Below, one piece after another: positions 2 through 17,646 of a DNA stretch of 43,016 bases; position 1 is the stretch's first letter; every line of letters starts with the position of its first letter. The stretch covers positions 1-43,016 of the forward strand of contig CATLPG010000022.1 in the NCBI GenBank assembly GCA_950054195.1, in the 5' to 3' direction. A program made the position numbers and the translations under genes. Below the pieces are notes generated by a model. That model had not been told where the DNA came from and ran no database searches. It saw nothing but the letters and a program-made list of their open reading frames with translations. This DNA is from an uncultured Saccharospirillaceae bacterium (GTDB lineage: Bacteria > Bacteroidota > Bacteroidia > Flavobacteriales_D > CAJJDF01).

Positions 2-844
2 GAAATTGCATCACCAGAAGACAAAGCTGAAGAAATATTAAAAACAGGCAAGTTAGGAAGCTTTGAATATCCTTTTGATTTAAATAAAAAAATAGCACTT
101 ATTGTTCGTTCCAGTGGCTACCAAGATCAAAACATTTCATTTGATTCTTTACTGAATCTAATAAAAGATCAGGACACACTGGTAAAAATAAAAGTCACCT
201 TAAACAAATTGTTTAGCGGAAAGATTATAGATTTTATTACTGGGAATGTTATTCCAAATGTAACTATTTTAATTACTGAAAATCAATCGGGAAAGAAAGA
301 TACTATTACTACAAATGACGAAGGGGAGTGGTCGTATCCATTTGATGAGAGTAATTCTTACGAGATTGAGTTGATATCCAAAAATCACGATAAGAAAACC
401 TTTAAAGTTTCGAGTTCATCTGATAACACAGATCTATTTAGTTTGTTAGAAGATTTAGAAGAGGTGAAATTGCTTTCCAGAACAAATAAAGGGGATGTAA
501 TTACCATCAATAATATCTACTTTGATTTTAGTTCAGCATCCATTAGGAAGGATTCTTATCAAATTTTAGATAACCTCAGCGAGTTTTTGAAAACAAAAAA
601 GGACGTGAAAATTTTGATTGGAGCGCATACAGATTGTGAGGGAAGTGACGAGAGTAATTTGTATTTAAGTAAAGAAAGAGCCAGAAATTGTCAATACTAT
701 TTAGTACGTAAGGGGATTAGTAAAAGACGTTTACAAAGAAAAGGTTACGGTGAAAAATACATTCTTAACGGATGTACAAAGCCTGGGCAATGCACAGAAA
801 AAGAAAATGAAATAAACAGAAGGATCGAATTAAAGATCATCTAA
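2..844 (+). CDS. OmpA-family protein with carboxypeptidase-regulatory-like repeats, 5' partial
   Basis: The frame is open from base 2, so the N-terminus lies outside the window and the TTG at 209 is not a real start. The visible part has two similar beta-sandwich repeats (GSFEYPFD and EWSYPFDE mark corresponding strands), like carboxypeptidase regulatory domains. An OmpA C-terminal peptidoglycan-binding domain follows: IYFDFSSASIR, GAHTDCEGSDESN, LSKERARNCQYYL and NEINRRIELKII. Family knowledge: OmpA domains of this type bind diaminopimelate in peptidoglycan and tether outer-membrane complexes. In T9SS bacteria PorE has the order TPR, WD40/beta-propeller, regulatory domain, OmpA, and works with PorP/SprF-like proteins. 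A PorE-like role is inferred from the T9SS type B cargo genes just downstream. The missing N-terminus prevents a firm assignment. Confidence 0.85.
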   Translation, partial: EIASPEDKAEEILKTGKLGSFEYPFDLNKKIALIVRSSGYQDQNISFDSLLNLIKDQDTLVKIKVTLNKLFSGKIIDFITGNVIPNVTILITENQSGKKDTITTNDEGEWSYPFDESNSYEIELISKNHDKKTFKVSSSSDNTDLFSLLEDLEEVKLLSRTNKGDVITINNIYFDFSSASIRKDSYQILDNLSEFLKTKKDVKILIGAHTDCEGSDESNLYLSKERARNCQYYLVRKGISKRRLQRKGYGEKYILNGCTKPGQCTEKENEINRRIELKII

Positions 845-856
845 AAAACATTGATT

Positions 857-2113
857 ATGTTGAAGTATAAATTATTAGTTGGTGTTATACTTGCTGTAAG
901 CATGGGAACATCGCAGGTCTCAATAAGTGATAACGGAGTGTTGGTTCCAGATAGTTCGTCTGTGCTAGAGCTAACCAGTGTAAATAAAGGGATGCTTATC
1001 CCTTCAATAGCATTGGTTTCCAAAAATGCTCAAACACCAATTGTTTCAACGCCTAAGAATAGTTTGTTGGTATACAATACTGCAACGAGTGGGTTAGGAA
1101 TTAATGCTGTTACACCAGGATTTTATTATTGGAGAAGTGATATTTCTGAGTGGGAGCGATTACTATCAGGGACAAGTACATCTGGAACAGACGACCAAAA
1201 CTTAGATAGTATGAGTTTAAATGGAACGTTGTTGACTGGTTATATCGAAAATGGAACGAGTGCATCCATCGATCTTCGTCCGATAGTGGACTCGGCAATT
1301 ATGAATGCTTCGGGCTCTGACGACCAAAACTTAACTGTAGGAGCAGGTACACCAACTACATCTATTATAGATATTGAAGGAAGTACAAGCGATGTAACAT
1401 TACAAAGTGGTTCCAATATCATGTTAAGTGAATCAGGTAATACAATCACAATTTCAGCTATCGGTGATGGAACTGGAACTGACGATCAAAACTTAACTGT
1501 AGGGGCAGGTACACCAACTACGTCCATTATAGATATAGAAGGAAGCACGAGTGATGTAACATTGCAAAGCGGTTCTAATATCATGTTAAGCGAATCAGGA
1601 AATACGATTACTATTTCAGCTTTAGGGGATGGAACGGGTACTGATGATCAAAACTTGACTCTTGACGCTGGTTCCGCAAATACATCCATTTTGAACCTAG
1701 AGAATGGTACCGATATTGTCATTCAAGCAGGTTCAAATATAACACTTAGTGAATCTTCAGATACATTAACTATTACCGCATCTGGAGGTGGAGGAGCAGT
1801 TGGTTATGATACGGTTGAATACCTTACTGGAAAAACATGGATAGACGGAAAACCAGTGTACGAAAGGGTGTTAAATAACTATACTGGTGCCACTGGTTCT
1901 GGTCTTAATTTTTCTTCCTATTTCCCTGCTAATTACATTGACCATATTTTAGATATGAGAATAATTAGTGAATGTGGAGGACAAACCCATCATTCCTCAT
2001 ATGGGTCATTCAATTATAATGGTTCTTCAAACTCTTTAAGTTCATCTGTTAACGCAAATTTTTCCTCATGTGGAGGTCAATATACAATAATATTAGAATA
2101 CACAAGACAATAA
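857..2113 (+). CDS. secreted repeat-stalk protein with WIDGKP-type C-terminal tip
   Basis: A 418-residue protein starting at ATG 857, which gives a clean signal peptide (MLKYKLLVGVILAVSMGTSQ). A TTG two codons earlier is less likely. An N-terminal module of about 80 residues (VSISDNGVLVPDSS to PGFYYWRSDISEWERL) is followed by a beta-repeat stalk. In the stalk a 54-residue unit (DDQNLTVGAGTPTTSIIDIEG...SGNTITIS) occurs twice almost unchanged. The C-terminal segment carries WIDGKP at residues 328-333 plus a Cys/Ser-rich end. From memory, WIDGKPxY motifs occur in phage tail-fibre and prophage structural proteins. No T9SS sorting domain is visible. The start lies 12 bases after the OmpA stop, so the two are probably cotranscribed. 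The next gene is a paralogue in its N-terminal half. A surface adhesin or fibre role is inferred. Confidence 0.75.
   Translation: MLKYKLLVGVILAVSMGTSQVSISDNGVLVPDSSSVLELTSVNKGMLIPSIALVSKNAQTPIVSTPKNSLLVYNTATSGLGINAVTPGFYYWRSDISEWERLLSGTSTSGTDDQNLDSMSLNGTLLTGYIENGTSASIDLRPIVDSAIMNASGSDDQNLTVGAGTPTTSIIDIEGSTSDVTLQSGSNIMLSESGNTITISAIGDGTGTDDQNLTVGAGTPTTSIIDIEGSTSDVTLQSGSNIMLSESGNTITISALGDGTGTDDQNLTLDAGSANTSILNLENGTDIVIQAGSNITLSESSDTLTITASGGGGAVGYDTVEYLTGKTWIDGKPVYERVLNNYTGATGSGLNFSSYFPANYIDHILDMRIISECGGQTHHSSYGSFNYNGSSNSLSSSVNANFSSCGGQYTIILEYTRQ
1319..1640 (+). repeat. two tandem 162-bp coding repeats
   Basis: The segment starting at 1319 (GACGACCAAAACTTAACTGT) recurs at 1481 with only scattered, mostly silent differences, giving two 54-residue copies of the stalk repeat. 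A third, more diverged copy follows from about 1645. A period divisible by three keeps the frame if copy number changes. Confidence 0.85.
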
Positions 2114-2137
2114 ATAACCAAACGAAACAAGAGACAA

Positions 2138-5100
2138 ATGAAAAAACTAATTACCCTAATCAGTTTAATCTTAATTTACTTTCAATCATACACACAGGTG
2201 TCGATTAGTGATAGTGGCGTTGCTATACCTGATCCTTCATCGGTGTTAGATATTGTAAGTAACAATAAGGGAGTTCTAATTCCAATGGTCGATTTGGTTG
2301 CGAAGAATTCACAAGCACCAATAGTATCAACTCCTAAGAACAGTTTGTTAGTGTATAATAATGCTACCAGTGGAGTGGGAATTAATGCTGTTATGCCAGG
2401 GTTTTATTATTGGAGAAGTGATATTTTAGAATGGGAAAGAATTTTATCTGGAGCTAGTGTAGCTGGAACTGATGATCAAAACCTAGATAGTGCAAGTTTA
2501 AATGGTACTATTCTTACTACCTATATTGAGAACGGGGCTAGTGTTTCAGTAGATATGAGAAGTCTTGTGGATTCAGCAGTCAATCAAGCTACTGGGGCAG
2601 ATGATCAAAACATTGATAGTTTAACGTTAGCAGGAACCAATCTTCATGTATATATTGAAAATGGAACAGCTGGTATTGTTGACTTACAGCCTATCATCGA
2701 TTCTGCAGTTATATCTTCTTCTGGAACGGATGATCAAACGTTAACTGTTGATCCTGCAACCCCAACAACATCTATCATCGATATAGAAGGTAGCACGAGC
2801 GATGTGACCTTACAAAGCGGTTCAAATATTGTTTTAAGCGAATCTGGAAACACCATTACTATTTCTTCTATTGGAGATGGTATAGGAACGGATGATCAAA
2901 ATATAGACAGCTTAACACTTGCTGGTAGTACGTTGACGGTATGGATAGAAAATGGTAGTCCGTCAAGTATCGATTTAGCTAGCTTAACATCCAGTTTTAC
3001 TACCGATAATCAAAACATTGATAGTGTAAAAGTATCAGGAACATTTTTAGAAATATTTATTGAAGATGGTGCAAGAGGAACAGTTGATTTGCAACCAATC
3101 ATTGATTCAGCGGTGTCTTCATCCACTGGAACGGATGATCAAACCTTAACCGTTGATCCTGCAACCCCAACAACATCCATAATCGATATAGAAGGAAGTA
3201 CAAGTGACGTTACTTTACAAAGCGGGTCAAATATTACGTTAAGCGAATCAGGAAATACAATTACAATTTCAGCTTCAGGTGATGGTACAGGTACAGATGA
3301 TCAAAATATAGATAGTGTTACTTTATCAGGAACTAATCTTAATGTATATATAGAAAATGGAACAGTAGGAACAATTGACTTACAACCTATAGTTGATTCG
3401 GCATTAGCTTCTTCAACAGGAACGGATGATCAAACTTTAACTGTAGGGGCAGGAACGGTAAATACTTCAATCATCGACATAGAAGGGAGTACAAGCGATG
3501 TAACCTTACAAAGTGGTTCAAATATTACGTTAAGTGAATCAGGAAATACAATTACAATTTCAGCCTCAGGTGATGGTACAGGTACAGATGATCAAAATAT
3601 AGATAGTGTTACTTTATCAGGAACTAATCTTAATGTATATATAGAAAATGGAACAGTAGGAACCATCGATTTACAACCAATTATTGACTCGGCACTAGCT
3701 ACATCTACAGGAACTGATGATCAAAATCTTTCAGTTAGTGCAGGTGCGGCAAATACTTCTGTTATTGATATTGAATCGGGATCAGGGATAACCTTAGCAG
3801 GAACTCCCGGTATTTCTGTTTCGGAAGCAGGTAATACCATTACATTAACTAATTCTCAACCAAATGTTGATCAAACATTAAATGTAACAACACCTGTTGC
3901 TACAACAGAAAGAATTACAATATCTGGTAGTAATGACTTTTTTGATTTAGTCGAAGGTTCAAACGTTACATTAAACAGAACTGGACAAGCGATAACAATT
4001 AATGCTACTGGTGGAGGTTCGGCTCAAGATTTAAGTGTTGGAGGCGGAACTGCAACAACTTCTATCATTGATATTTCGGGTAGTGCTAATGATATTACGT
4101 TGGAGGCAGGTTCAAATATAACACTGACCGAATCTGGTAACACGATTACTATTGCTTCTTCAGGAGGTGCTGGTTCAGGGTGGTTAACTACTGGAAATGC
4201 AGGAACAAATCCTACTACCAACTTTTTAGGAACAACCGATAACCAAGCATTGGCTATTCGAACCAATAACGATATCAAGCTACGCTTATTAACAAATGGA
4301 ACACTAGAATTTATAGATACTGATCAAAATATACACATCGGTCGAAATGCTGGAATAACAGGGACAGGACAAGATCAAAGAAATGTTTTTATAGGAGAAA
4401 ATTCTGGTCAAAATAATTTACAAGGAGATGATAATGTTTTTATTGGTTATCAAGCGGGGTTAACTTCTCACCAAGGTACAGACAATGTTTTTATTGGAAG
4501 TAGAGCTGGAGAATCCAATACACAGGGAGGAGAGAATATTTTTATAGGGCACGAATCTGGTTTTAGCAATACACAAGGAGGAAGTAATATTTTTGTTGGT
4601 AATGAGGCTGGACGTAGTAATATGGCTGGGTCAGATAATGTATTTGTTGGAGATAATGCAGGAAGAGCCAATGTTTCTGGTGTATGGAATGTTGCTATTG
4701 GAGTAGATGCACTCGAAACAAGTACAGCAAGTAGAAATACGGCTGTGGGTGCATTTTCATTGACAAGTAATACCACTGGTAACAGAAACAGTGCTTTTGG
4801 TGAGCAAAGTTTAGGAGATAATACAACTGGAGGAGATAATGCTGCTTTTGGAAATTATGCACTTAGTAGCACTACTGATGCTGATAGAAATGCAGCCTTT
4901 GGATATTCCGCTTTGTCGAGTAGTACAACTGGAGAAGAAAATACTGCTGTAGGATTTATATCTAATAGATCAAACGTAACTGGTGATCAAAATACCACCA
5001 TTGGGGCATGGTCTATGTGGCAAAACGAATCCGGATCTCGTAATGTTGTCATGGGGTATGGTGCACTATGGGAAGATACAATCAGCTCTAATAATGTAGC

Positions 5101-5746
5101 CATCGGTTACAGGACATTATACAATAACCAATCAGGAAATAACAACACGGCTTTGGGGTATAACGCATTTAATGCTGGAACGAATTACACAAACTCAACC
5201 GCTATTGGTGCAAACAGCGTTATTAACGCAAGTAATAAAGTAAGACTAGGAAACGCAAGTGTTACCGTTATTGAAGGTCAGGTCGCTTATTCGTTTCCAT
5301 CGGATGGTAGGTTTAAGAAAAACATAAACGAAGAGGATGTGAAAGGGTTAGATTTTATCATGGAATTGCGCCCAGTTACCTATAATTTCGAAACCAAAAA
5401 ATTTGATGAATTTTTATTAAGATCAGTGAGTGACTCAATAAAAGAATCGATCATTAATTCAACAGATTATACCAATTCGCAAGCTATTAAGCATTCCGGG
5501 TTTATTGCCCAAGAAGTTGAACAAGCAATGAAAAAAGCTAACTATGAATTTGATGGGGTTAATATTCCTAAAAGTGATGAAGAAAACTATAGCGTTTCTT
5601 ATTCTCAATTTGTAGTACCATTGGTTAAAGCAACGCAGGAACAGCAAGAATTGATAGCAAAGCAGCAAGAGCAACTTCAAAATCAAGCTGAAAAAATTAA
5701 GAAGCTAGAAGAGCAAATGAAGCAACTAATCGAACGTAAAAAGTAA
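2138..5746 (+). CDS. trimeric-fibre-like surface protein with C-terminal peptidase S74 self-cleaving chaperone
   Basis: A 1202-residue protein with a signal peptide (MKKLITLISLILIYFQSYTQ). Residues 20-100 repeat the N-terminal module of the preceding gene. A long stalk (about 108-680) uses units such as DDQNIDSVTLSGTNLNVYIE and SIIDIEGSTSDVTLQSGSNI. Residues 732-1035 carry about a dozen NVFIGxxAG / NTAVGxxxL units, like the beta-roll heads of YadA-type trimeric adhesins. The C-terminus is a peptidase S74 (endosialidase chaperone) domain with SDGRFKKNI: Ser1055 and Lys1060 have the S+5=K spacing of the phage catalytic pair. A coiled coil (1168-1202) ends the protein. Family knowledge: S74 domains assist trimerisation and then cleave themselves off. 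No T9SS sorting domain is seen, so its export route is unclear. Confidence 0.85.
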   Translation: MKKLITLISLILIYFQSYTQVSISDSGVAIPDPSSVLDIVSNNKGVLIPMVDLVAKNSQAPIVSTPKNSLLVYNNATSGVGINAVMPGFYYWRSDILEWERILSGASVAGTDDQNLDSASLNGTILTTYIENGASVSVDMRSLVDSAVNQATGADDQNIDSLTLAGTNLHVYIENGTAGIVDLQPIIDSAVISSSGTDDQTLTVDPATPTTSIIDIEGSTSDVTLQSGSNIVLSESGNTITISSIGDGIGTDDQNIDSLTLAGSTLTVWIENGSPSSIDLASLTSSFTTDNQNIDSVKVSGTFLEIFIEDGARGTVDLQPIIDSAVSSSTGTDDQTLTVDPATPTTSIIDIEGSTSDVTLQSGSNITLSESGNTITISASGDGTGTDDQNIDSVTLSGTNLNVYIENGTVGTIDLQPIVDSALASSTGTDDQTLTVGAGTVNTSIIDIEGSTSDVTLQSGSNITLSESGNTITISASGDGTGTDDQNIDSVTLSGTNLNVYIENGTVGTIDLQPIIDSALATSTGTDDQNLSVSAGAANTSVIDIESGSGITLAGTPGISVSEAGNTITLTNSQPNVDQTLNVTTPVATTERITISGSNDFFDLVEGSNVTLNRTGQAITINATGGGSAQDLSVGGGTATTSIIDISGSANDITLEAGSNITLTESGNTITIASSGGAGSGWLTTGNAGTNPTTNFLGTTDNQALAIRTNNDIKLRLLTNGTLEFIDTDQNIHIGRNAGITGTGQDQRNVFIGENSGQNNLQGDDNVFIGYQAGLTSHQGTDNVFIGSRAGESNTQGGENIFIGHESGFSNTQGGSNIFVGNEAGRSNMAGSDNVFVGDNAGRANVSGVWNVAIGVDALETSTASRNTAVGAFSLTSNTTGNRNSAFGEQSLGDNTTGGDNAAFGNYALSSTTDADRNAAFGYSALSSSTTGEENTAVGFISNRSNVTGDQNTTIGAWSMWQNESGSRNVVMGYGALWEDTISSNNVAIGYRTLYNNQSGNNNTALGYNAFNAGTNYTNSTAIGANSVINASNKVRLGNASVTVIEGQVAYSFPSDGRFKKNINEEDVKGLDFIMELRPVTYNFETKKFDEFLLRSVSDSIKESIINSTDYTNSQAIKHSGFIAQEVEQAMKKANYEFDGVNIPKSDEENYSVSYSQFVVPLVKATQEQQELIAKQQEQLQNQAEKIKKLEEQMKQLIERKK
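3227..3663 (+). repeat. near-identical 291-bp-period coding repeat
   Basis: Bases 3227-3372 and 3518-3663 differ at only two positions over 146 bp. The offset is 291 bp, or 97 residues. Flanking parts of the unit are more diverged, so the match looks like recent duplication or gene conversion inside the stalk. Confidence 0.9.
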
Positions 5747-5756
5747 ACAACAGACG

Positions 5757-7016
5757 ATGAAAAGCATCTTTAAAATAAGTTTTCTAGTCATTTTCGTTCA
5801 AACTTCTTTATGCTATGCACAAGGAGGAATGAATGTGTATAGAGGAAATGTTAATATCGTACAAGGAGGCGGTGTTCAAGTGCTGGGAGATGTTGAAATT
5901 AGCTTGAATACAGGAATTGAGAATAACGGAGACTTACATCTAACAGGTGATTGGGTAAATAACTCACAAGATTCTGGGTTGATCAACCAAGGAGAGGGAA
6001 ATGTTGCTTTAAATGGAAATTACCAAGAAATTTCAGGTGACAGTCCTACTTATTTTTCAACGCTAATTTTACAAACCAATCAATCTGTAAAAGCAAGTCA
6101 AATTGAAACGTATATCACTCGGTTTTTTCAAATTAATGACGTTATTTATCAAACCAATCAGTTCAATACGCATGTGTTAAATCCAACCACAAATGCAGTA
6201 TCATGGAGTACTGGTTTTATTGAAAGTAGCCAGCTTGCAGGTAATATATTACGCTCAACAAATACCGATTCGTCTTACTTTTTTCCAGTAGGAAGTCAGA
6301 CAATATCAAATAACCTAAGAGCCATTGAGGTTCAGCCATCTTCTAATGATTCAAACGTATTTGCTGTTCGGTTAGGGGTTCAAGATGCATCTTTGGAAGT
6401 AGGTACGTCTTTAGCAGGATCCATTGCTCCGTTTGACCGGGAGTCAAAAGAAATAACAATTGGCGACATCAACCCTATTTACTATCATAATGTAAGTCAG
6501 CCTTTCGGAAATCAACCAGCTGATATTAGTTTGTACCACATGTCACAAGACGGCAATGGAGCATTCACTGCTTTGGCTGGATGGAACGTTTCAACGAGCA
6601 GTTGGGATGAGGTTTCAGTAAGTATGAATCCTGTTACATCTAATTTATTCTTGGGTAATCCCGATAGAAAAGCAGATTTTTTACTCTCTGCAAATACTAA
6701 TGATGACGTTTATGCGCTTGCTTCGCTAGCAGTTACAGCTCCTACAGGCTTTACGCCCAACGGAGATGGAATTAATGATGTGTTTTTCGTGAAAGGATTA
6801 GAAAATTTCCCTGATAATGAGCTTTACGTATACAATCGTTGGGGGCAATTAATTTATGAAGCTAAACCATATGCAAACGATTGGAATGGAATAAATACTT
6901 CTGGTGCAGTTAAAATACAAGGAGATGAAGTAGATGAAGACACTTACTTCTATATCTTAAAACTTTCAGAAGATATGGATCCAATAAAAAATTATGTAGA
7001 CATAGTAAAAGACTAA
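5757..7016 (+). CDS. T9SS type B secreted protein (CHU_C C-terminal domain)
   Basis: A 419-residue protein with a signal peptide ending near CYAQ. The middle is a glycine/asparagine-rich beta structure (VLGDVEISLNTGIENNGDLHLTGDWVNNS), like secreted beta-helix proteins. The C-terminus from about residue 330 is a gliding-motility-associated CHU_C domain (APTGFTPNGDGINDVFFVKG, LYVYNRWGQLIYEA, WNG). This is the type B T9SS signal, which keeps cargo at or beyond the outer membrane. The gene starts 10 bases after the S74-protein stop, so the two are probably cotranscribed. The specific substrate or partner cannot be read from the sequence. Association with the neighbouring fibre proteins is only inferred from position. 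Confidence 0.85.
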   Translation: MKSIFKISFLVIFVQTSLCYAQGGMNVYRGNVNIVQGGGVQVLGDVEISLNTGIENNGDLHLTGDWVNNSQDSGLINQGEGNVALNGNYQEISGDSPTYFSTLILQTNQSVKASQIETYITRFFQINDVIYQTNQFNTHVLNPTTNAVSWSTGFIESSQLAGNILRSTNTDSSYFFPVGSQTISNNLRAIEVQPSSNDSNVFAVRLGVQDASLEVGTSLAGSIAPFDRESKEITIGDINPIYYHNVSQPFGNQPADISLYHMSQDGNGAFTALAGWNVSTSSWDEVSVSMNPVTSNLFLGNPDRKADFLLSANTNDDVYALASLAVTAPTGFTPNGDGINDVFFVKGLENFPDNELYVYNRWGQLIYEAKPYANDWNGINTSGAVKIQGDEVDEDTYFYILKLSEDMDPIKNYVDIVKD

Positions 7017-7133: not shown

Positions 7134-10100
7134 ATGATCAAAATATATTTATTCATTTTAACATTGATTTTTTCGATTTCCATGTTTGCCCAAAACGAAG
7201 TGAAGCGAGCTAATCACTGGTATTATGCTACGAACATTGCATTGGATTTTACTTGTGCGCCACCTACTGACGTGCCTGGTTGCCAGCTAGGTTCTTCAGA
7301 ATGTGCAACTACGATGAGTACAGCAAACGGTGATTTATTGTTTTATTCTGATGGTGTTAGGGTATGGGACAGAAACAACAATTTGATGCCTAACGGTTCT
7401 GGTTTGGCTGGATCTACTTCCACTGTTCAAGGTGCTTTGGCAGTTCCTCATCCTGGTAACCCCAATCGATATTTTCTTTTTACAGCTGGTTCTTCTATTG
7501 AAGACATGGGACTTGTAGGTTTGAACTACTCCGAAATTGACATGACGCTAAACGCGGGAAATGGTGATGTCGTTGTAGCGACTAAAAATACCTTTCTCTT
7601 TTCTCCAAACGAAGAAAAATTAACGGCTGTACGAAATGCCTCAAATACGGGATATTGGGTAACTGCTCAAGAAAAATCTGGAAATAGTTGGTATACTTAC
7701 GAGGTAACTGCTGCAGGAGTAAACCCAACACCAGTTATCTCTGTTACTGGTCCAAATGCTCGGGTAGACAATTCGCTTATGGCTAAATTTTCACCAGACG
7801 GAAATTGGCTGGCTACTCAAAATGGTTGTCAGGGAGGTTCAAATGCAGCCGTGACGGTTTACAAGTTTAATAATGCGACAGGAGTGATTGATTATGCATG
7901 GAGTGATTGTGGAACACCAGGGTTTAAAATGGAGTTCTCACCCAATTCTACCAAGCTTTATGCAGGGGCAACACGAATTTATCAATACGATTTATCAGCT
8001 GGTGGTGGTACCGGAGTAGGGAACGATACTACTGCAGTGAAAGCATCAAGGACTGAGGTGAGTACCGCTACCCGTCAAGGAAATGTTGGTATGCAGCTTG
8101 GTCCTGATTGCAAATTATATATAGCTACCAGAGAGTTTGGTTTTGGTGGTTCATCTTACATAGGAGCTTTTAATAATCCGAATGAAGCAGGAGCAGCTTG
8201 TAACATCCAACCGAATATTTTTACACCAACAAATGGTTCGATTAGTAGTATCGGTCACTTTCCAAACTTTGTCACTTCGTTTTTCGAAAATCCCTGTAAC
8301 GATAGTATTGAAGTAGAACTTACACCTAATGATACGGTTATTTGTGCGGGGGAGAGCATTACATTAGAAGCATTCGTAGACAATCCTTGTGCTTATACGA
8401 TCACATGGAACACTGGAGATGTAGGGTTAGGGCCTCATATGAAAACACCCGCTGCAACAACTACTTATCAAATTATAGTTTCTAATGCAACAAATTCGGA
8501 TACAGCTGATGTCACTGTTGTGGTTGGTGGAGGAAACGCTGGAAACGATACTGCTTTTCAAGTATGTGCATCAACAGTTGATCTAGATGCGAATAAAACG
8601 GCTAATTCGGATATAGGAGGAGGCTGGTTTGATGCATCTTATGTTCCAACTACATCAAATGTAACATTAACAACTGGACTGAATACGTTTTACTATATAT
8701 TGGGCAGTGGACCTTGTGGTGATACAGCAGTATATGATGTTACCCGAGTGAGTGGTGGATCTGCAACGTTGTTTGGTAACGATACAACGATTTGTGGAAA
8801 TTCATATGTGTTAGATCTTAGTCAACCAAATACTACCTATGAGTGGAGTGATGGATCAACTGCAGATACGCTTCTTATATCAACTAGTGGTTTATACTGG
8901 GCAGAAACCACCAACACGGTGAGTGGCTGCATCATCCGTGACTCGATAACAATAACACTAAATACTCCAGGTAATGCAGGACGAGATACAGCTGTTTTCA
9001 AATGCGAAGAGACCATTGATCTTTTTGATGCACTCGAAGCAGGTTATACGACTGGTGGTACTTGGTTTGATGCTGGTTTTGTTGCTCAAACAATGCCATT
9101 AACCACAGCCACTGCTGTAGCAGGAGATTATTACTACATTGTTGGTTCTGGCGCTTGTAGCGATACGGCCACCATTGGATTATCACTGTCTAATTTAACC
9201 TTAGATTTAGGAAATGATACAACTATATGTGATCCTACCCTTGTTCTTAGAGCAACAACTGCAAACGTTACTTATTTATGGAACGATGGTTCCATGGAAG
9301 ATACGCTATTGGTAAATACAAGCGGATTATATTGGGCAGAAATTACCGATATCACCAGTAGTTGTTCTTTCAGAGATTCCATTACCATAACTTTGGTATC
9401 TACCGTTGATGCAGGACGAGATACAGCAGTAGTAAAATGTGAAGAAACCATCGATCTTTTTGATGCGCTTGAAGCTGGTTATACTACTGGTGGGACTTGG
9501 TTTGACGCTGGTTTTGTTTCCCAAGCAATGCCATTAACCACTGCCACTGCTGTAACAGGAAATTATTATTACATTGTAGGCTCTGGATCTTGCACAGATA
9601 CTGCTACTGTTGGTTTATCCATTTCTGTTTTAACTGCCGATATTGGAAATGATACAGCAATATGCGACAACCAATACGTGCTGGACGCCTTTACAACAGA
9701 TGTAACTTATCTGTGGAACGATGCTTCTACTACAGATACGCTTCTTGTAACTACATCAGGCGTATATTCGGTAACCATAACCGATACCAATACCGGTTGT
9801 CAAGCCAGTGATACAACTACGATTACGTTGGCATCTTCGGTAAATGCAGGATCTGATTCAACAGCATATTTTTGTTACGATTCTTTGGATTTAACACCGT
9901 ATTTAGGAGCACATTCAGTAGGAGGAAACTGGTTCAATGCGTCTTTTACTGGCGTAACAATGCCTCTTTCAACAGCAGATGGAGCAGGGAATTATTATTA
10001 CATCGTAGGAAGTGGTACTTGCGCTGATACTGCTCAAATCAATGTGATTAACTATACCTATAACTTAAACTTAGGTCCGGATACTTCTTTATGTGCAAAT

Positions 10101-12134
10101 ATTAGCTATACCATTCAGTTGCAAACAGCTGGTGTTTCATCATTTCTTTGGGATGATGGAGATGTAACTTCTTCTAATCAAATTGCATCACCAGATACCT
10201 TGTACTGGGTAGATGTAGAAGACAGTTTAACAGGTTGTGTTTTTAGAGATTCTTTGATTATTCAATTTATTGAGGTAGCTGCTGGTAGAGATACATTTGC
10301 TACCGTATGTGAAAATACAACAGTTGATTTAAATACATACCTTGTCGATAATAATAGCACTGGAACATGGTTAGGTCCATCCAATGCAGGAATTACAATG
10401 CCATTTAATTTTCAATTGGCTGACTCAGGAATATATAAACATGTAGTATCCAACGGAAACTGTACCGATACTGCTTTCATAACAGTTCAGGTAGTGGCTG
10501 CATTTGCAGGTGCAGACACGAGTTGGACGACCTGTAATGATTCCATCTATGATTTGAATACGACTTTAGTAGCGGATGCTCCAACTGGAGGAATTTGGTT
10601 AGATGATCAATTCAATCCATCAAGTAATAATGTAATTACTCAAAATGGACTAAATCGATTTTACTACGTAATCAATGTTGGATCGTGCACGGATACAAGT
10701 ACGTATGATATCACTAGTGTTTATTCGGGAAGCAATTCCTTTTTAGGCAATGATACCAGTTTGTGTGAAACAGAGACGATTCAACTATCTGCTCCAGCAA
10801 ATCCAAACTTCACTTATTTATGGAGTACGGGAAATACGACTAATACAGAAACAGCTACTTTTCCAGATTCCATCTATTGGCTGGATATAACAGATACGGC
10901 AAGCGGTTGTACATTTACAGATTCTGTTTTGATTTCATTTAATCAAGTATTGGATGCTGGTTTAGATACAACAGTAGTTTTTTGTAACGATACATTGGTT
11001 GATTTATCAGCCTATTTAAGAAACAACCAAAGTACAAATGGAACTTGGCTGGATGATAATGATCTCCCAGTTACCATGCCTCAAAATATTAACGCTTCAA
11101 ACGCGGGTGTGTTTAAATTTATTTTGACTGACGGAGCGTGTAGCGATACAGCTTTTATTACAATTAGTCACTCCAATACGGTTAATTTTTCATTAGGAAA
11201 CGATACTGCACTTTGTGAAAATGAATCGCTTACGTTAGCTGTCAATTTACCAGGATATGACATTCTTTGGAATTCGGGTTCTATGCAAAATACAGAAGTG
11301 GTTAATCAACCAGGCGGACAAGTATCTGTAACGCTCACAAATCAACAATCAGGTTGTGTTATTTCAGACTCTATACAAGTTACGTTTGATGTAATTCCTG
11401 ATTTGGGTAATGACAGTTTACTTTTTGTTTGTTCTTCTGAACAAGTGAATTTGTTTGATGCTTTACCGCAAGGGGTAGACCAAAGTGGAACATGGACCAA
11501 TAGCGGTGATGCGGTTTTATTAATGCCTATTGATCCTTTTGAAGATACTTACAAATATACCCTTCAAAATGGTGCTTGTTTGGATTCTGTAAATGTAACG
11601 ATCCAATTGATCAATACTTCTTCGGATTTTTCATATTTCCCAGAAGAAGATATTTTTACTAATGATATCGTAAGCTTCCAAGCATTGTCTGGTACTAATG
11701 ATACCTATCAATGGCTCATTGACGGTGTACCTGTTTCAAACGATATTCAATTTGAAAACGGTTTTGATAATCCAGGAGAGTATATTATTTGTCTAGCGGT
11801 TGATTTGAGCAATTGCGTTGATACCACATGTACTGAGATAACAGTAGGGGAGCGGTTGAATGTATTTGTACCATCAAGTTTTAGTCCGAATAATGATGGG
11901 ATTAACGATGAGTTTACTCCTATTATTCAAGGTGATTATGAAAGCTACGAGTTTACTATTTATAATCAATGGGGACAAGAAATTTTCACTACGAATAAAA
12001 AAGACCAAGTTTGGAGAGGTATGTTTAAATATGAGCTCGTTCCAGTGGGTGTTTATGTTTGGAAAATCAATTACAAAGAGACTGGAGGTGTAACCAATAA
12101 GTCTATCCACGGACATGTTACGGTGGTGCGGTAG
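7134..12134 (+). CDS. giant T9SS type B secreted protein with propeller-like N-terminus and Ig-like repeats
   Basis: A 1666-residue protein with a signal peptide (MIKIYLFILTLIFSISMFAQ). Residues 25-385 contain short propeller-like blades (NGDLLFYSDGVRVWDRNN, MAKFSPDGNWLATQNG, KMEFSPNSTKLYAGATRIYQYD). The rest is tandem Ig-like repeats in two alternating types: LGNDTTIC...YLWNDGSTxDTLLVxTSGxYW and AGRDTAVxKCEETIDLFDAL...GGTWFDAGF...YYYIVGSG. Each contains Cys and SDTA/RDSI motifs. A PKD-like domain (about 1500-1575) precedes a CHU_C sorting domain (VPSSFSPNNDGINDEFTPII, FTIYNQWGQEIF). Such proteins are exported by the T9SS and often act as large adhesins; the ligand is unknown. The 117-base gap and hairpin upstream suggest a separate transcript. 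Confidence 0.85.
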   Translation: MIKIYLFILTLIFSISMFAQNEVKRANHWYYATNIALDFTCAPPTDVPGCQLGSSECATTMSTANGDLLFYSDGVRVWDRNNNLMPNGSGLAGSTSTVQGALAVPHPGNPNRYFLFTAGSSIEDMGLVGLNYSEIDMTLNAGNGDVVVATKNTFLFSPNEEKLTAVRNASNTGYWVTAQEKSGNSWYTYEVTAAGVNPTPVISVTGPNARVDNSLMAKFSPDGNWLATQNGCQGGSNAAVTVYKFNNATGVIDYAWSDCGTPGFKMEFSPNSTKLYAGATRIYQYDLSAGGGTGVGNDTTAVKASRTEVSTATRQGNVGMQLGPDCKLYIATREFGFGGSSYIGAFNNPNEAGAACNIQPNIFTPTNGSISSIGHFPNFVTSFFENPCNDSIEVELTPNDTVICAGESITLEAFVDNPCAYTITWNTGDVGLGPHMKTPAATTTYQIIVSNATNSDTADVTVVVGGGNAGNDTAFQVCASTVDLDANKTANSDIGGGWFDASYVPTTSNVTLTTGLNTFYYILGSGPCGDTAVYDVTRVSGGSATLFGNDTTICGNSYVLDLSQPNTTYEWSDGSTADTLLISTSGLYWAETTNTVSGCIIRDSITITLNTPGNAGRDTAVFKCEETIDLFDALEAGYTTGGTWFDAGFVAQTMPLTTATAVAGDYYYIVGSGACSDTATIGLSLSNLTLDLGNDTTICDPTLVLRATTANVTYLWNDGSMEDTLLVNTSGLYWAEITDITSSCSFRDSITITLVSTVDAGRDTAVVKCEETIDLFDALEAGYTTGGTWFDAGFVSQAMPLTTATAVTGNYYYIVGSGSCTDTATVGLSISVLTADIGNDTAICDNQYVLDAFTTDVTYLWNDASTTDTLLVTTSGVYSVTITDTNTGCQASDTTTITLASSVNAGSDSTAYFCYDSLDLTPYLGAHSVGGNWFNASFTGVTMPLSTADGAGNYYYIVGSGTCADTAQINVINYTYNLNLGPDTSLCANISYTIQLQTAGVSSFLWDDGDVTSSNQIASPDTLYWVDVEDSLTGCVFRDSLIIQFIEVAAGRDTFATVCENTTVDLNTYLVDNNSTGTWLGPSNAGITMPFNFQLADSGIYKHVVSNGNCTDTAFITVQVVAAFAGADTSWTTCNDSIYDLNTTLVADAPTGGIWLDDQFNPSSNNVITQNGLNRFYYVINVGSCTDTSTYDITSVYSGSNSFLGNDTSLCETETIQLSAPANPNFTYLWSTGNTTNTETATFPDSIYWLDITDTASGCTFTDSVLISFNQVLDAGLDTTVVFCNDTLVDLSAYLRNNQSTNGTWLDDNDLPVTMPQNINASNAGVFKFILTDGACSDTAFITISHSNTVNFSLGNDTALCENESLTLAVNLPGYDILWNSGSMQNTEVVNQPGGQVSVTLTNQQSGCVISDSIQVTFDVIPDLGNDSLLFVCSSEQVNLFDALPQGVDQSGTWTNSGDAVLLMPIDPFEDTYKYTLQNGACLDSVNVTIQLINTSSDFSYFPEEDIFTNDIVSFQALSGTNDTYQWLIDGVPVSNDIQFENGFDNPGEYIICLAVDLSNCVDTTCTEITVGERLNVFVPSSFSPNNDGINDEFTPIIQGDYESYEFTIYNQWGQEIFTTNKKDQVWRGMFKYELVPVGVYVWKINYKETGGVTNKSIHGHVTVVR
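8976..9620 (+). repeat. 435-bp-period coding repeat in the giant T9SS protein
   Basis: The unit starting GCAGGACGAGATACAGC at 8976 recurs at 9411, an offset of 435 bp or 145 residues, with high DNA identity over roughly 200 bp. It encodes the CEETIDLFDALEAGYTTGGT module. More diverged modules with the same pattern continue on both sides. Confidence 0.85.
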
Positions 12135-12659: not shown

Positions 12660-15600
12660 TTACTGATTCATTTTCCTGTAAATCTTTTTCATCATTAATT
12701 CCTTTACCAAGTCTCCGAACATTTTATCTTCTAATATTTTCTCAAATATGTCTTGGTTTTGGTCCATTCGTCCAATTAGTTTGGTCATAAACATATCCTC
12801 AAACGCATATTTAAACGTGTCCATTTTATTCGCTTTCGCCTGTTTTTGAAGTTTTTCGTCTTCCATTAATTCCGCTTCTATTTGGTCAAAGAATAGTTTG
12901 TCTGCTTCTTCAAATTCAGTTCCAAATCGGTCATTTAATACTGAGACAATTTCCGATAATAATGCTTCTTCTTCCTTCGTGCGCTTTAATCCGGCTTCTG
13001 TGGTTCCACTCAATTCTCCTTCTTCACCTTTCAAAAGGTCAATAGAACCTTCTTTAATCTTTTCTAAGCGATAATATTCCAAAGCCACTTCATCAGAAAG
13101 TTGGAAAGTCTCTGATAAATCTCTTTTCGGCAAACGTGTTTGTAATAATTTGGCAAACGCATAGAATTTTTCAAATTCAGCATCAACGAATGGCATTATT
13201 TGAGCTAAAAAGGAATACAAATTTGTCCAAGAACGAATTGATTTTTTAAATTCATCTTGTTTTTCTTCGGTTTCTAATTCTTTAAAACGTTCTATAGATG
13301 GGTCTGTAAATGAATACAAATACTTTTGATTCTTAGCATTATTCAAATTTGTGTTAGGGTGGAAGTAGACATTTGCAAATTCATCAATTTCATCTTGCCA
13401 ATACACTTGAAAAGCATCTAACCTTGCTTTTAAATCGTACAGATGATTGATGTCTGTTTCATCTGTAACTGTTGTCACTTCGTAATAAGGTTGGAATGAG
13501 TTAAAGATAGTTTCTCTGTCATTCGCAAAATCCAACACAAAAGTATCTTCTTTACCTGCATACATTCTGTTTAATCTAGAAAGGGTCTGAACTGCTTTTA
13601 CTCCTGATAATTTTTTGTCTACATACATTGTATGCAATAAAGGTTGATCAAAACCTGTCTGATATTTATCTGCTACAATTAGAATTTTGTATTCGGCTGT
13701 ATCAAACATTTGAGGTAATTCTTTTTCTTTAAAGCCGTTCAATTCTGATTCTAAAACTCCATCAGGATAATTATCATCTTTAAGTTTTCCCGAGAAGGCC
13801 ACAATGACTTTTAATTCATTCTGATATTTTTTCTCCTTGATGTATTTTTTAAATTCTTCAAAATATCTTTTGGCGTGCAATCTTGAACCACAAACCACCA
13901 TTGCTTTTGCTTTACCACCAATTTTTTTAGAAACAATAGACCTGAAATGCTCTATGATTATTTCTGTTTTTTGAGCCAAATTGTGTGGATGCAAGGACAC
14001 ATATTTACCAATGGCTTTTGCTGTTTTCTTTTTATTCAGTTGTGGGTCTTCTTCTATGGCTTTAGTCAATTTGAAATAAAGCTCATAAGTTGTATAGTTT
14101 TTGAGAACATCTAAAATAAAACCTTCTTCAATTGCTTGACGCATAGAATATAAATGAAAAGGTTTTGGTTTGCCTTCTTCATCTTTAGCTCCAAAAACTT
14201 TTAGAGTTTTATATTTTGGTGTTGCTGTAAAAGCAAAGAATGAAACATTTGTTTGTCGACCTCTTGCCTGAGCTGACTTTTCAATACAACTATTCACAAT
14301 ATCCTGACCTAAAATAGTTTCGTCATCATCACCTTCTCCGTAATTTGGATAAGGTTCCTGTATTGTGTTTTCTTCATTTTCTACAACACCTAAAACCTCT
14401 TTCATTTTTTTACTTGCTTCACCACCTTGTGAGCTGTGAGCCTCATCAATAATTACAGCATATTTACGGTCTGGAATTTCACCAATTTTATCAATTACAT
14501 AAGGGAACTTTTGAAGTGTGGTGATTATAATATTTATTCCGTTACTAATCGCATCTGCTAGTTGTTTACTGTCTTTATCTATTTTTTGAACTACACCTTG
14601 TTTGTGTTCAAATTGATAAATAGTATTTTGTAACTGTTGGTCTAAAACTCGTCTGTCAGTTACTACAATTACAGAATCAAAAATACGTTCGTTCGATGCA
14701 TTGTGTAAGCTGGTTAATCGATAAGCTAACCAAGCGATGGAATTACTTTTTCCAGAACCTGCTGAATGTTGTATTAAATAGTTTTTTCCTGCTCCATTTC
14801 TTAAAGTGTCATTAGTTATTTCACGAACAGCATCCAATTGATGATAACGAGGAAAAATCATTTTTTCCTTTTTATAAATCTTTCCGTTTGAAATGACTTC
14901 CTCTGTTTGTAAATGGATGAATTGTTGTAATATTTGAAGCCAACTATCTTTTTGTAAAATATAATTCCATAAATACGCTGTACGATAGTCGCCTGATGTA
15001 TTTATTGGATTTCCTTTTCCGTTTCCATTACCTTGATTAAACGGTAGCCAAAAGGTTTTAGAACCTTCTAATTTGGTTGCCATATACACTTCATCTGAAT
15101 CTACAGAGAAGTGAACCAACGCCCGTTTTTTAAAGGAAAACAACAGTTCTTTGGAGTCTCTTGTGTCTTTATATTGTTTTTTGGCGTGATTTACATTTTG
15201 TCCAGTAAACTGATTTTTAAGTTCTAATGTTGCTACTGGCAAACCGTTTAAGCCTAAAACAATATCAACCGAATTTTTATTTTTTTTACTGTAATAGATT
15301 TGGCGATATACTTTTAAACTATTGCTATTATACATCTGTACAGCATCAGGATTTAAACCTGAAGCAGGTTTAAAATATGCCATTTGAAAACGTACACCAT
15401 AATCTACAAAGCCTTTACGCAACACATCTAAAGCACCTCTTAAATCTAGTTCCTTGTATAAGCGTTGTAACACTCGGTTTTCAGTATCTTTTCCGTGAAT
15501 AGCAGAAATTTTCTCCCACTTCTTCGGTTGTGAACGTTGTAAAAAAGCTAAGATTTCATCTTTGAAAACCCCAAGTTCTTTACTGTATGTGTTTGGATCG

Positions 15601-15680
15601 CCAATGCTATAACCACCATTTTGAACTAAGGCTTGTTCTATGGCAGTTTCAAATGTATTTTCAGTGGTTAGATTATTCAT
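12660..15680 (-). CDS. hsdR: type I restriction enzyme R subunit
   Basis: A 1006-residue motor and nuclease subunit of a type I restriction-modification complex, which translocates DNA and cuts it when the site is unmethylated. The N-terminal nuclease domain shows the PD-(D/E)xK element VDIVLGLN...TLELKNQ near residue 150. Helicase motifs follow: Walker A HSAGSGKSNS near 307, DEAH in VIIDEAHSSQGG near 410, FFAFTATPKY, and motif VI QTLSRLNRMY after YQTGFDQP. The C-terminus is helical and charged, as expected for HsdM contact. ATG 15680 is preferred: it lies five bases after the transposase stop and fits translational coupling. A TTG seven codons upstream would overlap that gene. Length and motifs are intact, so the enzyme should be functional. 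Confidence 0.95.
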   Translation of the reverse strand: MNNLTTENTFETAIEQALVQNGGYSIGDPNTYSKELGVFKDEILAFLQRSQPKKWEKISAIHGKDTENRVLQRLYKELDLRGALDVLRKGFVDYGVRFQMAYFKPASGLNPDAVQMYNSNSLKVYRQIYYSKKNKNSVDIVLGLNGLPVATLELKNQFTGQNVNHAKKQYKDTRDSKELLFSFKKRALVHFSVDSDEVYMATKLEGSKTFWLPFNQGNGNGKGNPINTSGDYRTAYLWNYILQKDSWLQILQQFIHLQTEEVISNGKIYKKEKMIFPRYHQLDAVREITNDTLRNGAGKNYLIQHSAGSGKSNSIAWLAYRLTSLHNASNERIFDSVIVVTDRRVLDQQLQNTIYQFEHKQGVVQKIDKDSKQLADAISNGINIIITTLQKFPYVIDKIGEIPDRKYAVIIDEAHSSQGGEASKKMKEVLGVVENEENTIQEPYPNYGEGDDDETILGQDIVNSCIEKSAQARGRQTNVSFFAFTATPKYKTLKVFGAKDEEGKPKPFHLYSMRQAIEEGFILDVLKNYTTYELYFKLTKAIEEDPQLNKKKTAKAIGKYVSLHPHNLAQKTEIIIEHFRSIVSKKIGGKAKAMVVCGSRLHAKRYFEEFKKYIKEKKYQNELKVIVAFSGKLKDDNYPDGVLESELNGFKEKELPQMFDTAEYKILIVADKYQTGFDQPLLHTMYVDKKLSGVKAVQTLSRLNRMYAGKEDTFVLDFANDRETIFNSFQPYYEVTTVTDETDINHLYDLKARLDAFQVYWQDEIDEFANVYFHPNTNLNNAKNQKYLYSFTDPSIERFKELETEEKQDEFKKSIRSWTNLYSFLAQIMPFVDAEFEKFYAFAKLLQTRLPKRDLSETFQLSDEVALEYYRLEKIKEGSIDLLKGEEGELSGTTEAGLKRTKEEEALLSEIVSVLNDRFGTEFEEADKLFFDQIEAELMEDEKLQKQAKANKMDTFKYAFEDMFMTKLIGRMDQNQDIFEKILEDKMFGDLVKELMMKKIYRKMNQ

Positions 15681-15685
15681 AGAAT

Positions 15686-16249
15686 TTATCTTTTTTCCCA
15701 ATTCAAGGGATTTTGTTCAATATAATTAGAAATGGTGTAAAATGATTTGTCATTTCTGATGATATGGTCGTGGTATCGAGGTTGCCAAGAAAAATCAGGA
15801 TTAATTAGACGCGAATTTTTGGTTACCCCAATTTTAAACCCACGAACAATGGATGCCAAATTTTTGGATTGTGGTCCGAATTTGTTTTTGGTGTTTGCAT
15901 TCATATTGGTGGTAGAGACGCAACGTATTGCGTCTCTACATTGGGTATTGAATTCATTATCGCCAATACCTATGATGGCGTGAAAATGATTGGGCATCAC
16001 CACAAATTCACCCATCCATAAATTCATATCGGGGCGCATTTCAAATGTTTTTAACCATTCGATTTCGACAATTTTTCCAATTTCGGATAATGAAACGGAT
16101 GGCAATCCGTTTTTATCAGTTATAATATCCCCAAAAAAATGTGTTCGGTTTTGCGTACAAATTGTGATAAAATATAAACCGTTGCTCCGATAATCCCAAT
16201 TGGGATGCCGGGCAGATTTTATACGATATTTGTTTTTATATTTTTTCAT
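15686..16249 (-). CDS. REP-associated tyrosine transposase (RAYT, Y1/HUH family)
   Basis: A 187-residue Y1-type transposase. Diagnostic motifs are YFITICTQNRTHFFGDI near the N-terminus, the metal-binding HxH in VVMPNHFHAIIGI, and the C-terminal catalytic-tyrosine region FYTISNYIEQNPLNW. RAYTs are single-copy domesticated relatives of IS200/IS605 transposases that bind and cut palindromic REP sequences. The gene sits inside the hsd operon in the same orientation, 71 bases after the hsdS stop and five bases before the hsdR start. The stretch encoding CRDAIRCVS is itself a perfect REP-like palindrome (15912-15939), in frame. A second palindrome lies just upstream. The catalytic motifs appear intact. 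Confidence 0.92.
   Translation of the reverse strand: MKKYKNKYRIKSARHPNWDYRSNGLYFITICTQNRTHFFGDIITDKNGLPSVSLSEIGKIVEIEWLKTFEMRPDMNLWMGEFVVMPNHFHAIIGIGDNEFNTQCRDAIRCVSTTNMNANTKNKFGPQSKNLASIVRGFKIGVTKNSRLINPDFSWQPRYHDHIIRNDKSFYTISNYIEQNPLNWEKR
15912..15939. repeat. REP-like palindrome inside the RAYT gene
   Basis: Arms GTAGAGACGCAA (15912-15923) and TTGCGTCTCTAC (15928-15939) are perfect complements around a CGTA centre. Read on the minus strand it stays in frame and encodes CRDAIRCVS. The same core, GAGACGCAA/TTGCGTCT, occurs at 16297-16324. Confidence 0.9.
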
Positions 16250-16258
16250 TTTGCTGCT

Positions 16259-16299
16259 GAGACGTTGTTAAGACGCTGTTGAGACGCTGTTGAGACGCT
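16259..16299. repeat. 11-bp tandem repeats, about 3.7 copies
   Basis: Units are GAGACGTTGTT, AAGACGCTGTT, GAGACGCTGTT and a partial GAGACGCT. They run directly into the REP-like palindrome at 16297. They lie in the short gap between hsdS and the RAYT start, within the RAYT 5' leader. Confidence 0.85.
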
Positions 16300-16324
16300 G
16301 AGACGCAATGCATTGCGTCTTTAC
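16297..16324. repeat. second REP-like palindrome, overlapping the hsdS stop codon
   Basis: The core AGACGCAATGCATTGCGTCT (16301-16320) is a perfect 20-bp palindrome. Over 28 bp it matches the copy at 15912 apart from a few outer bases and the central spacer. Its left-hand flank contains the hsdS stop codon (16321-16323). Confidence 0.88.
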
Positions 16325-17646
16325 CCATCGACCACTTTTATTTTACCGGTTACCACTTCGCTAATTAAAGCTGTTCTGTATTCGGTTAATAGGTTAATGT
16401 ATTTTTCAGCTTTAGCAATTTTAGCGTCTATTCTTGCAGATTCCTTTTCTATATGTACTACAATTTCTGCTTGTTCAGAAACACTAAAAAAGGGTATTGG
16501 AATACCTCCAATCATTTCTAAATTAATACCATCTCTTTTATCTCCTCCACCTAAGTTTCTAATATTTTGGTAATTTCTTTTGAGCCAATAGAGTAAAAAC
16601 CGATTGTCAATTTTATTATTTGGAATAATAACTCCCATTGACTGATTGCAGGTACATTTAAATTGAACTTGTGCAACCATACCTTTGGTTTTTCCTTGAC
16701 CAGCTAAAGCCATTAGAATTGCCTTTTCTGGAATCCATTTTGCACTTGAGTTACTTAAAGCTTCTTCTGTAATATATTCAGAAGCTTCAGTAATGTCCCA
16801 TTGATTGACAGTTCCAGAATTTAACCAAGGTATTGTTCCGTTTGTCCAATATTCAGGTTTATTTTTAGAAGGTGTACCACCAGAATAAATATTTGAAACC
16901 CATTTTAAGGAAACTGCATCCCAATGTTCAGGAATATCGCCCAACCATTCAATACCACTTTCTTTTAGTTTTACATCTGGGTTAATGCCTTTGGTAACCG
17001 CTTGGTTAATAATAGCTGTTTTTTCTTCTTGGTAGAGCTGTACTAATTCTTCTTTCTCAGAAATGAGTTGGTCTATTTCTGCTGTTTTTTTGTCTAGGTA
17101 GTTGGCTATGGCTGTTTGTTCTTTAATTGTTTTTGGTAAGATTATTCTCATCCTCCCAAAATCCTCTTTACCAATATTTGGTTGTCCCGTTTCTCTTTGG
17201 TCGTAGAATATTTGCTTTAAAATCAAATCAGATGATAAAACCCAAAAAAGAAAATTCTTATCTAATTTATCTTCATCTAATGGGAAAAAGTTTCCAACAC
17301 GATAGTTTTGAAGTAATGGTTCGTTAACTTGAGGAACTCTTATTATTTTACCTATAGTTCCACCTGTCAGAGCCATTAATATATCTCCTTCGTTTATAAT
17401 TATGTCACTGAAATTTTCAAGCCTAGTTAAATCTATAAAACTTACTTTTTCAGTTTCTAAATTTCCATTTGATAGTAACTGAGTTATCTTGATAATTTTT
17501 AACCCAGATTGTGTAAAGTCATAATCCCTAAATTGATAACCGTGTCTTAAGAAAACATAGTGATTAAAATTAATCTTCTCCCAATGTTCAGGAATCTCAC
17601 CAATCCATTCTATACCACTGTCCTTATAATTTTCGTAAGTTTTCAT
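16321..17646 (-). CDS. hsdS: type I restriction-modification specificity subunit
   Basis: A 441-residue DNA-recognition subunit that sets the bipartite target for methylation and restriction. It has the two-fold HsdS layout. Target-recognition domain 1 begins at DSGIEWIGEIPEHWEK and ends in a helical spacer (EQTAIANYLDKKTAEIDQLI). Domain 2 begins at ESGIEWLGDIPEHWDA and ends in SEQAEIVVHIEKESARIDAKI. The two TRDs differ in sequence, implying two different half-sites; these cannot be deduced. The ATG overlaps the hsdM stop by one base (TAATG), so translation is coupled. The stop codon lies within a REP-like palindrome, so the extreme C-terminus (KIKVVDG) may have been reshaped by that insertion. 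Confidence 0.95.
   Translation of the reverse strand: MKTYENYKDSGIEWIGEIPEHWEKINFNHYVFLRHGYQFRDYDFTQSGLKIIKITQLLSNGNLETEKVSFIDLTRLENFSDIIINEGDILMALTGGTIGKIIRVPQVNEPLLQNYRVGNFFPLDEDKLDKNFLFWVLSSDLILKQIFYDQRETGQPNIGKEDFGRMRIILPKTIKEQTAIANYLDKKTAEIDQLISEKEELVQLYQEEKTAIINQAVTKGINPDVKLKESGIEWLGDIPEHWDAVSLKWVSNIYSGGTPSKNKPEYWTNGTIPWLNSGTVNQWDITEASEYITEEALSNSSAKWIPEKAILMALAGQGKTKGMVAQVQFKCTCNQSMGVIIPNNKIDNRFLLYWLKRNYQNIRNLGGGDKRDGINLEMIGGIPIPFFSVSEQAEIVVHIEKESARIDAKIAKAEKYINLLTEYRTALISEVVTGKIKVVDG

What the first reader, a model, noticed from the sequence alone, without database searches (positions are those of the whole stretch)
857..5746. Paired surface fibres sharing a stalk but carrying two different phage-like tips
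Two adjacent genes encode signal-peptide proteins with the same N-terminal module and stalk repeats. One ends in a WIDGKP segment, the other in a YadA-like head plus a peptidase S74 chaperone. Both C-terminal types are, to my knowledge, best known from phage tail fibres and tips. No phage structural genes are nearby; the neighbours are OmpA and T9SS cargo. This suggests a chromosomal system that reuses fibre tips as swappable adhesins.
Basis: partly seen in the sequence, partly recalled or inferred. Interest (0 to 1): 0.75.

Follow-up and report, generated by a model that had tools for sequence, protein, structure and literature searches.

The report
Bacterial surface fibres with phage-like tips
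Two neighbouring genes in a chromosomal region without phage genes make related secreted fibre proteins with the same base and shaft but different ends, both related to the tips of phage tail fibres; this resembles the mosaic adhesive fibres already described in Bdellovibrio, but here such fibres repeatedly sit next to genes of the Bacteroidota type IX secretion system, which suggests how they might be displayed.

Summary
Two adjacent genes (857-2113, 418 aa; 2138-5746, 1202 aa) share a signal peptide, an 86-residue N-module (77% identical) and 43/54-residue stalk repeats. The first ends in a WIDGKP domain; a profile from 115 viral tips covers it end to end (47 bits). The second ends in a YadA-like head and an S74 chaperone with the SDxxxK motif, 30-33% identical to phage fibres over 87% of the segment. 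Nothing phage-like was found in the 43-kb window. The pair is not singular: the genome has 13 S74 genes and about ten non-S74 fibres, and the N-module occurs in 65 of 296 sampled Bacteroidota genomes but was not found in phages. The design matches the mosaic adhesive trimers (MAT) of Bdellovibrio, so the tip-on-a-chassis idea is known; this is a Bacteroidota variant. New here: none of 63 fibres has its own type IX sorting domain, yet of 17 genes within 60 bp upstream of such fibres ten are type IX cargo or PorP/SprF, six are fibres and one is a PKD-repeat protein. In this locus a PorE-like gene and a type-B cargo gene flank the pair. I propose that this platform displays the fibres; that is inferred. 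Recent tip exchange is not shown.

The parts
2..844 (+). C-terminal part of a PorE-like OmpA-family protein (CarboxypepD_reg + OmpA domains), cut by the start of the contig
   Evidence: Pfam OmpA 1e-17; NCBIfam CHU_0125 9e-30 and T9SS_PorE 3e-23, below their full-length cut-offs, only the last ~200 profile positions matched; frame open from base 2; 12 bp before P1
857..2113 (+). P1: non-S74 fibre, 418 aa: signal peptide, N-module, 43/54-aa stalk repeats, WIDGKP tip
914..1171 (+). N-module of P1 (residues 20-105), shared with P2 and with many Bacteroidota fibres
   Evidence: 46/199 order genomes and 65/296 phylum genomes; no phage match
1190..1795 (+). P1 stalk: one 43-aa and three ~54-aa repeats
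1799..2110 (+). WIDGKP tip domain of P1 (residues 315-418), beta-sandwich model
   Evidence: viral-tip profile 47.3 bits end to end; AlphaFold2 pLDDT 80.5; BFVD best E 2.3e-5; only copy in this genome
2138..5746 (+). P2: S74 fibre, 1202 aa: signal peptide, N-module, stalk repeats, YadA-like head, S74 chaperone
2195..2452 (+). N-module of P2, 77% identical to that of P1
2471..4237 (+). P2 stalk repeats (43-aa and 54-aa units)
4360..5250 (+). YadA-like head repeats of P2 (approximate limits)
   Evidence: repeats of the type NVFIGxxAG; PHROG virion/tail families
5300..5743 (+). S74 intramolecular chaperone of P2, predicted to be cleaved at SDGRFK (Ser1055)
   Evidence: Pfam PF13884 E 1.2e-10; SDxxxK motif
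5757..7016 (+). 419-aa type IX secretion cargo with a type-B sorting domain, 10 bp after P2; possible display partner
   Evidence: TIGR04131 5.9e-15 and CHU_C 2.3e-24; homologues sit just upstream of fibres in G005 C12 and C80
7134..12134 (+). 1666-aa type IX cargo with a type-B sorting domain, 117 bp further; membership in the operon uncertain

Best explanation
P1 and P2 are two members of a large Bacteroidota family of probably trimeric surface fibres that work like the mosaic adhesive trimers of Bdellovibrio. A conserved N-module sits at the cell and holds a repeat stalk, and the C-terminal end is a variable receptor-binding tip related to phage fibre tips. In P2 the S74 chaperone is predicted to trimerise the chain and cut itself off at Ser1055, leaving the YadA-like head as the end; P1's WIDGKP domain is predicted to be an independently folding beta-sandwich. 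The fibres carry no type IX sorting domain of their own. I infer that a type IX platform from the same operon (PorE-like OmpA protein, PorP/SprF-like barrel, type-B or type-A cargo) exports or anchors them. Shown: domain make-up, tip homology, family size, gene linkage, no N-module found in phage records. Inferred: trimer, cleavage, surface display, dependence on type IX, adhesion, ligand.
For: Shared N-module and stalk with different tips in this pair and across many genomes, where the same N-module carries S74, PDYVF-type and other ends. P1's tip matches the viral-tip profile end to end, and seven of ten full-length viral carriers match PHROG tail families. WIDGKP tips also sit on chromosomal secreted proteins with other N-modules and stalks: collagen-like in Snuella sedimenti, another repeat in G108, and diverged versions in the same-genus genome G005. 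P2's tip is 30-33% identical to phage fibres over about 87%. Display link: 0 of 63 fibres carry a T9SS sorting domain; of 17 upstream neighbours within 60 bp, 10 are T9SS cargo or PorP/SprF, 6 fibres, 1 a PKD-repeat protein, against 0 of 11 non-fibre downstream neighbours; the ten were confirmed with NCBIfam models. PorE-PorP-type-B cargo is a known surface complex (PMC9143113). MAT precedent: PMC10769870.
Against: Trimer, cleavage, surface location and binding are untested. At the other fibre loci of this genome that were inspected no T9SS gene lies directly upstream, and only one of its five homologues of the 419-aa cargo lies next to a fibre. The linkage loci are partly related to each other, and the T9SS profiles were seeded with some of them. 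P1's tip has no close solved fold (best Z 6.4, a common beta-sandwich level), and its homology rests largely on the motif region.
Confidence: 0.7

Rival explanations
1. The pair is a remnant of a prophage or tailocin: fibre genes left in the chromosome after the structural genes were lost.
For: Both tips are related to phage tips.
Against: Both proteins have signal peptides; of 113 complete viral WIDGKP proteins only eight passed a crude signal-peptide test and none looks convincing by eye. The N-module was not found in phages. No phage genes in the 43 kb. The same N-module occurs in 65 of 296 phylum genomes.
Confidence: 0.05
2. Ordinary surface fibres with no functional link to type IX secretion: they reach the surface by another route, and the neighbours reflect the abundance of T9SS genes in Bacteroidota.
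For: Most fibre loci in this genome have no T9SS gene directly upstream. T9SS cargo genes are common (54 matches to the cargo, mostly its sorting domain, in G005).
Against: All non-fibre short-gap upstream neighbours but one were T9SS cargo or PorP/SprF, against none downstream.
Confidence: 0.25
3. The tips are not adhesins: S74/YadA and WIDGKP domains serve only as trimerisation caps or as structural ends of a coat or matrix fibre.
For: S74 is a folding chaperone by known function; the tip ligand is unknown; P1's tip model matches only general beta-sandwiches in the PDB.
Against: Ends are diverse on a conserved chassis, as expected for receptor binding; a MAT fibre of Bdellovibrio binds surface glycans (PMC10769870).
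Confidence: 0.2

Closest known systems
Mosaic adhesive trimer (MAT) superfamily of Bdellovibrio bacteriovorus (PMC10769870)
   Same: Signal peptide, conserved N-terminal domain, long fibre, S74 and non-S74 members side by side (13 S74 there, 13 S74 genes in this genome), phage-like tips, beta-sandwich caps on some non-S74 members.
   Different: The N-module here is about 86 residues, not ~130, and homology of the two could not be tested; fibres here are linked to type IX secretion genes, which Bdellovibrio is not known to have (own knowledge); a WIDGKP tip is not mentioned in the passages read.
Phage tail fibres and spikes with an S74 intramolecular chaperone (endosialidase, T5 L-shaped fibre, SPO1-like and pelagiphage fibres)
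   Same: YadA-like head plus S74 with SDxxxK, 30-33% identity over about 87% of the segment.
   Different: Phage proteins lack the signal peptide (own knowledge) and this N-module.
Phage fibre proteins ending in the WIDGKP module (uncurated; not in Pfam)
   Same: About 100-residue C-terminal module running from Y-S-T-E..TG-WIDGKPIY to EYTK.
   Different: Carried here on a secreted bacterial stalk.
PorE-PorP-type-B cargo complex of the type IX secretion system (PMC9143113)
   Same: A PorE-like gene and a type-B cargo gene flank the fibres; cargo homologues in G005 stand in a cargo-PorP-OmpA triad.
   Different: No fibre is known in that complex; no PorP gene is seen beside the fibres here, and the contig starts inside the PorE-like gene.

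Membership tests
MAT superfamily (Bdellovibrio) | Signal peptide followed by the conserved N-terminal MAT domain (~130 aa, beta-rich) | not testable with these tools
   A conserved N-module directly after the signal peptide exists, but no Bdellovibrio full-length sequence could be fetched for comparison; the N-module model has no significant PDB match
MAT superfamily (Bdellovibrio) | S74 and non-S74 members sharing a chassis, with differing tips | tested here: met
MAT superfamily (Bdellovibrio) | Trimeric fibre on the cell surface whose tip binds surface glycans | not testable with these tools
   needs experiment
Peptidase S74 chaperone proteins | C-terminal S74 domain above the family cut-off with the SDxxxK cleavage motif | tested here: met
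   P2: 41.9 bits against cut-off 22; SDGRFK at 1055. P1 lacks it
Viral WIDGKP tip module | C-terminal ~100-aa domain from the WIDGKP motif to the EYTK end | tested here: met
   47.3 bits over profile positions 4-110 of 110; caveat: profile selected on the motif
Viral WIDGKP tip module | Same fold as solved phage tips | tested here: inconclusive
   Model is a beta-sandwich; best PDB Z 6.4, unspecific; BFVD viral models E 2.3e-5 and 9.8e-4
Prophage or phage fibre gene | Phage structural genes in the neighbourhood | tested here: not met
Type IX secretion cargo | Own C-terminal type A or B sorting domain on the fibre | tested here: not met
   0 of 63 fibres; P1 and P2 give no T9SS model hit

The most novel reading that the evidence does not exclude
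Bacteroidota have a type IX-dependent display system for trimeric phage-tip fibres: fibres without a sorting domain of their own are exported or held on the surface by a co-encoded type IX cargo and a PorP/PorE platform, which would be a new use of that secretion system.
Probability: 0.35. Interest if true: 0.75.

Novelty: new variant of a known kind. Interest (0 to 1): 0.5.

Why it matters
Fibres of this build are numerous in some Bacteroidota genomes. If they are mosaic adhesins, they explain part of how these cells recognise surfaces and each other. The linkage to type IX genes gives a testable answer to how such fibres are held on the cell, a point left open for the Bdellovibrio fibres.

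Tried and rejected
Prophage remnant: rejected. Direct family hits for the P1 tip: none in Pfam, PHROGs, phage records or PDB sequences; a tblastn search of phage records with one viral tip also found nothing, so the link rests on a profile from an IMG/VR pattern scan. DUF2917, DUF2442 and CrgA hits on stalk or coiled coil: partial or below cut-off, treated as spurious. Recent tip exchange by recombination in stalk repeats: not supported by DNA identity. N-module structure search: no match, monomer model of a likely trimer. An N-module alignment scan of IMG/VR could not be run, so absence from viruses rests only. Solved MAT tips do not stand among the listed fold matches; that is no evidence against a relation.

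Full report
What is there. The window is contig 22 of a 3.27-Mb genome in 118 contigs. From its start run, all on the + strand and closely spaced: the last part of a PorE-like OmpA protein (to 844), P1 (857-2113), P2 (2138-5746), a 419-aa type-B type IX cargo (5757-7016) and a 1666-aa type-B cargo (7134-12134). The gaps are 12, 24, 10 and 117 bp. The remaining ORFs scanned are a type I restriction-modification system, housekeeping genes and transporters; there is no tRNA.

Shared chassis. P1 and P2 start with Sec-type signal peptides (by eye), then an 86-residue module that is 77% identical, then 43- and 54-residue repeats. The same module occurs 16 times in this genome and in 46 of 199 sampled genomes of the order, and in 65 of 296 of the phylum. 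It has no match in 50,697 phage records and no close relative in IMG/VR. An alignment scan of IMG/VR was not possible.

Tips. P2 ends in YadA-like head repeats and an S74 chaperone with the SDGRFK motif at residue 1055; this part is about 30-33% identical to phage fibres over about 87% of its length. P1 ends in a 104-residue domain with the WIDGKP motif. No library names it. A profile of 115 of these matches P1 316-417 end to end with 47.3 bits; five shuffled tips score at most 2.3 bits; the part after the motif alone scores 10 bits. Of ten full-length viral carriers, seven match PHROG tail families. A model of the P1 tip (pLDDT 80.5) is a beta-sandwich that matches viral models with E 2.3e-5 at best and the PDB only at an unspecific level.

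The tip is found on other bacterial chassis. Snuella sedimenti has it on a secreted protein with a collagen-like stalk (L184); G108, in the same order, on another N-module and repeat (L239). In both, the gene lies a few bases after a small type-A sorting-domain gene (by sequence pattern), with a histidine kinase and response regulator upstream. The same-genus genome G005 has two diverged versions.

Family in this genome. There are 13 S74 matches. Other ends on related fibres include a PDYVF...HLP coiled-coil type and several unassigned beta ends. Fibres often stand in tandem.

Link to type IX secretion. None of 63 fibres carries a sorting domain. Among 58 loci sampled by the N-module, 17 fibres have a codirectional gene within 60 bp upstream: seven type-A cargo, one type-B cargo, two PorP/SprF and seven others, of which inspection shows six fibres and one PKD-repeat protein. 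The ten T9SS assignments were checked with NCBIfam: nine lie above the model's cut-off and one exactly at it. Eleven non-fibre downstream neighbours include none. In G005 two of four homologues of the 419-aa cargo lie directly before a fibre, and the other two lie in a cargo-PorP-OmpA triad. In this genome one of five lies beside a fibre. PorE, PorP and a type-B cargo form a complex in Porphyromonas gingivalis, and SprF binds SprB in Flavobacterium johnsoniae (PMC9143113). The linked loci are not independent of each other and no phylogenetic correction was made.

Mechanism. The most likely reading is a mosaic adhesive fibre: N-module at the cell, repeat stalk, variable tip, with the P2 chaperone removed by self-cleavage. 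Display through a type IX platform is inferred from gene order alone.

Comparison. The Bdellovibrio MAT superfamily has 21 members, 13 with S74 and 8 without, a conserved domain of about 130 aa after the signal peptide and diverse tips including beta-sandwiches, TNF-like and C-type lectin folds; the surface element that holds its N-terminal domain is unknown (PMC10769870). The fibres here work like MAT proteins. Membership is open because the N-terminal domains could not be compared. So the idea of chromosomal fibres with phage-like tips is not new; I found no description of the WIDGKP module or of a link between S74 fibres and type IX secretion in the held literature, which covers open-access papers only.

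Noticed in passing
window 12660-19595: Complete-looking type I restriction-modification system (HsdR, an unassigned 187-aa gene, HsdS, HsdM) just after the fibre and cargo genes, on the other strand.
   Followed up: no
L212:3844-10105: Chryseobacterium edaphi protein without an obvious signal peptide that combines a YadA-like head and a WIDGKP tip in one chain, next to a 1270-aa protein of unknown kind; could be part of a tail-like particle.
   Followed up: no
L273:5163-7677; L234:2029-7756: Same-genus genome G005: fibres directly after homologues of the 419-aa type-B cargo; one of them ends in a diverged YVDGRPIYRW...AVEYTR tip.
   Followed up: partly
L267, L269, L270, L272: N-module fibres with ends reading DYIEVWV...VQTLNLSI, which look TNF/C1q-like by eye, each followed 8-12 bp downstream by a 115-118-aa gene.
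   Followed up: no
L030, L031, L032, L034, L035, L041, L042 (contigs C63, C43, C32, C46, C78, C31 of this genome): Several contigs end inside fibre stalk repeats, so the number and order of fibre genes in this genome is uncertain.
   Followed up: no
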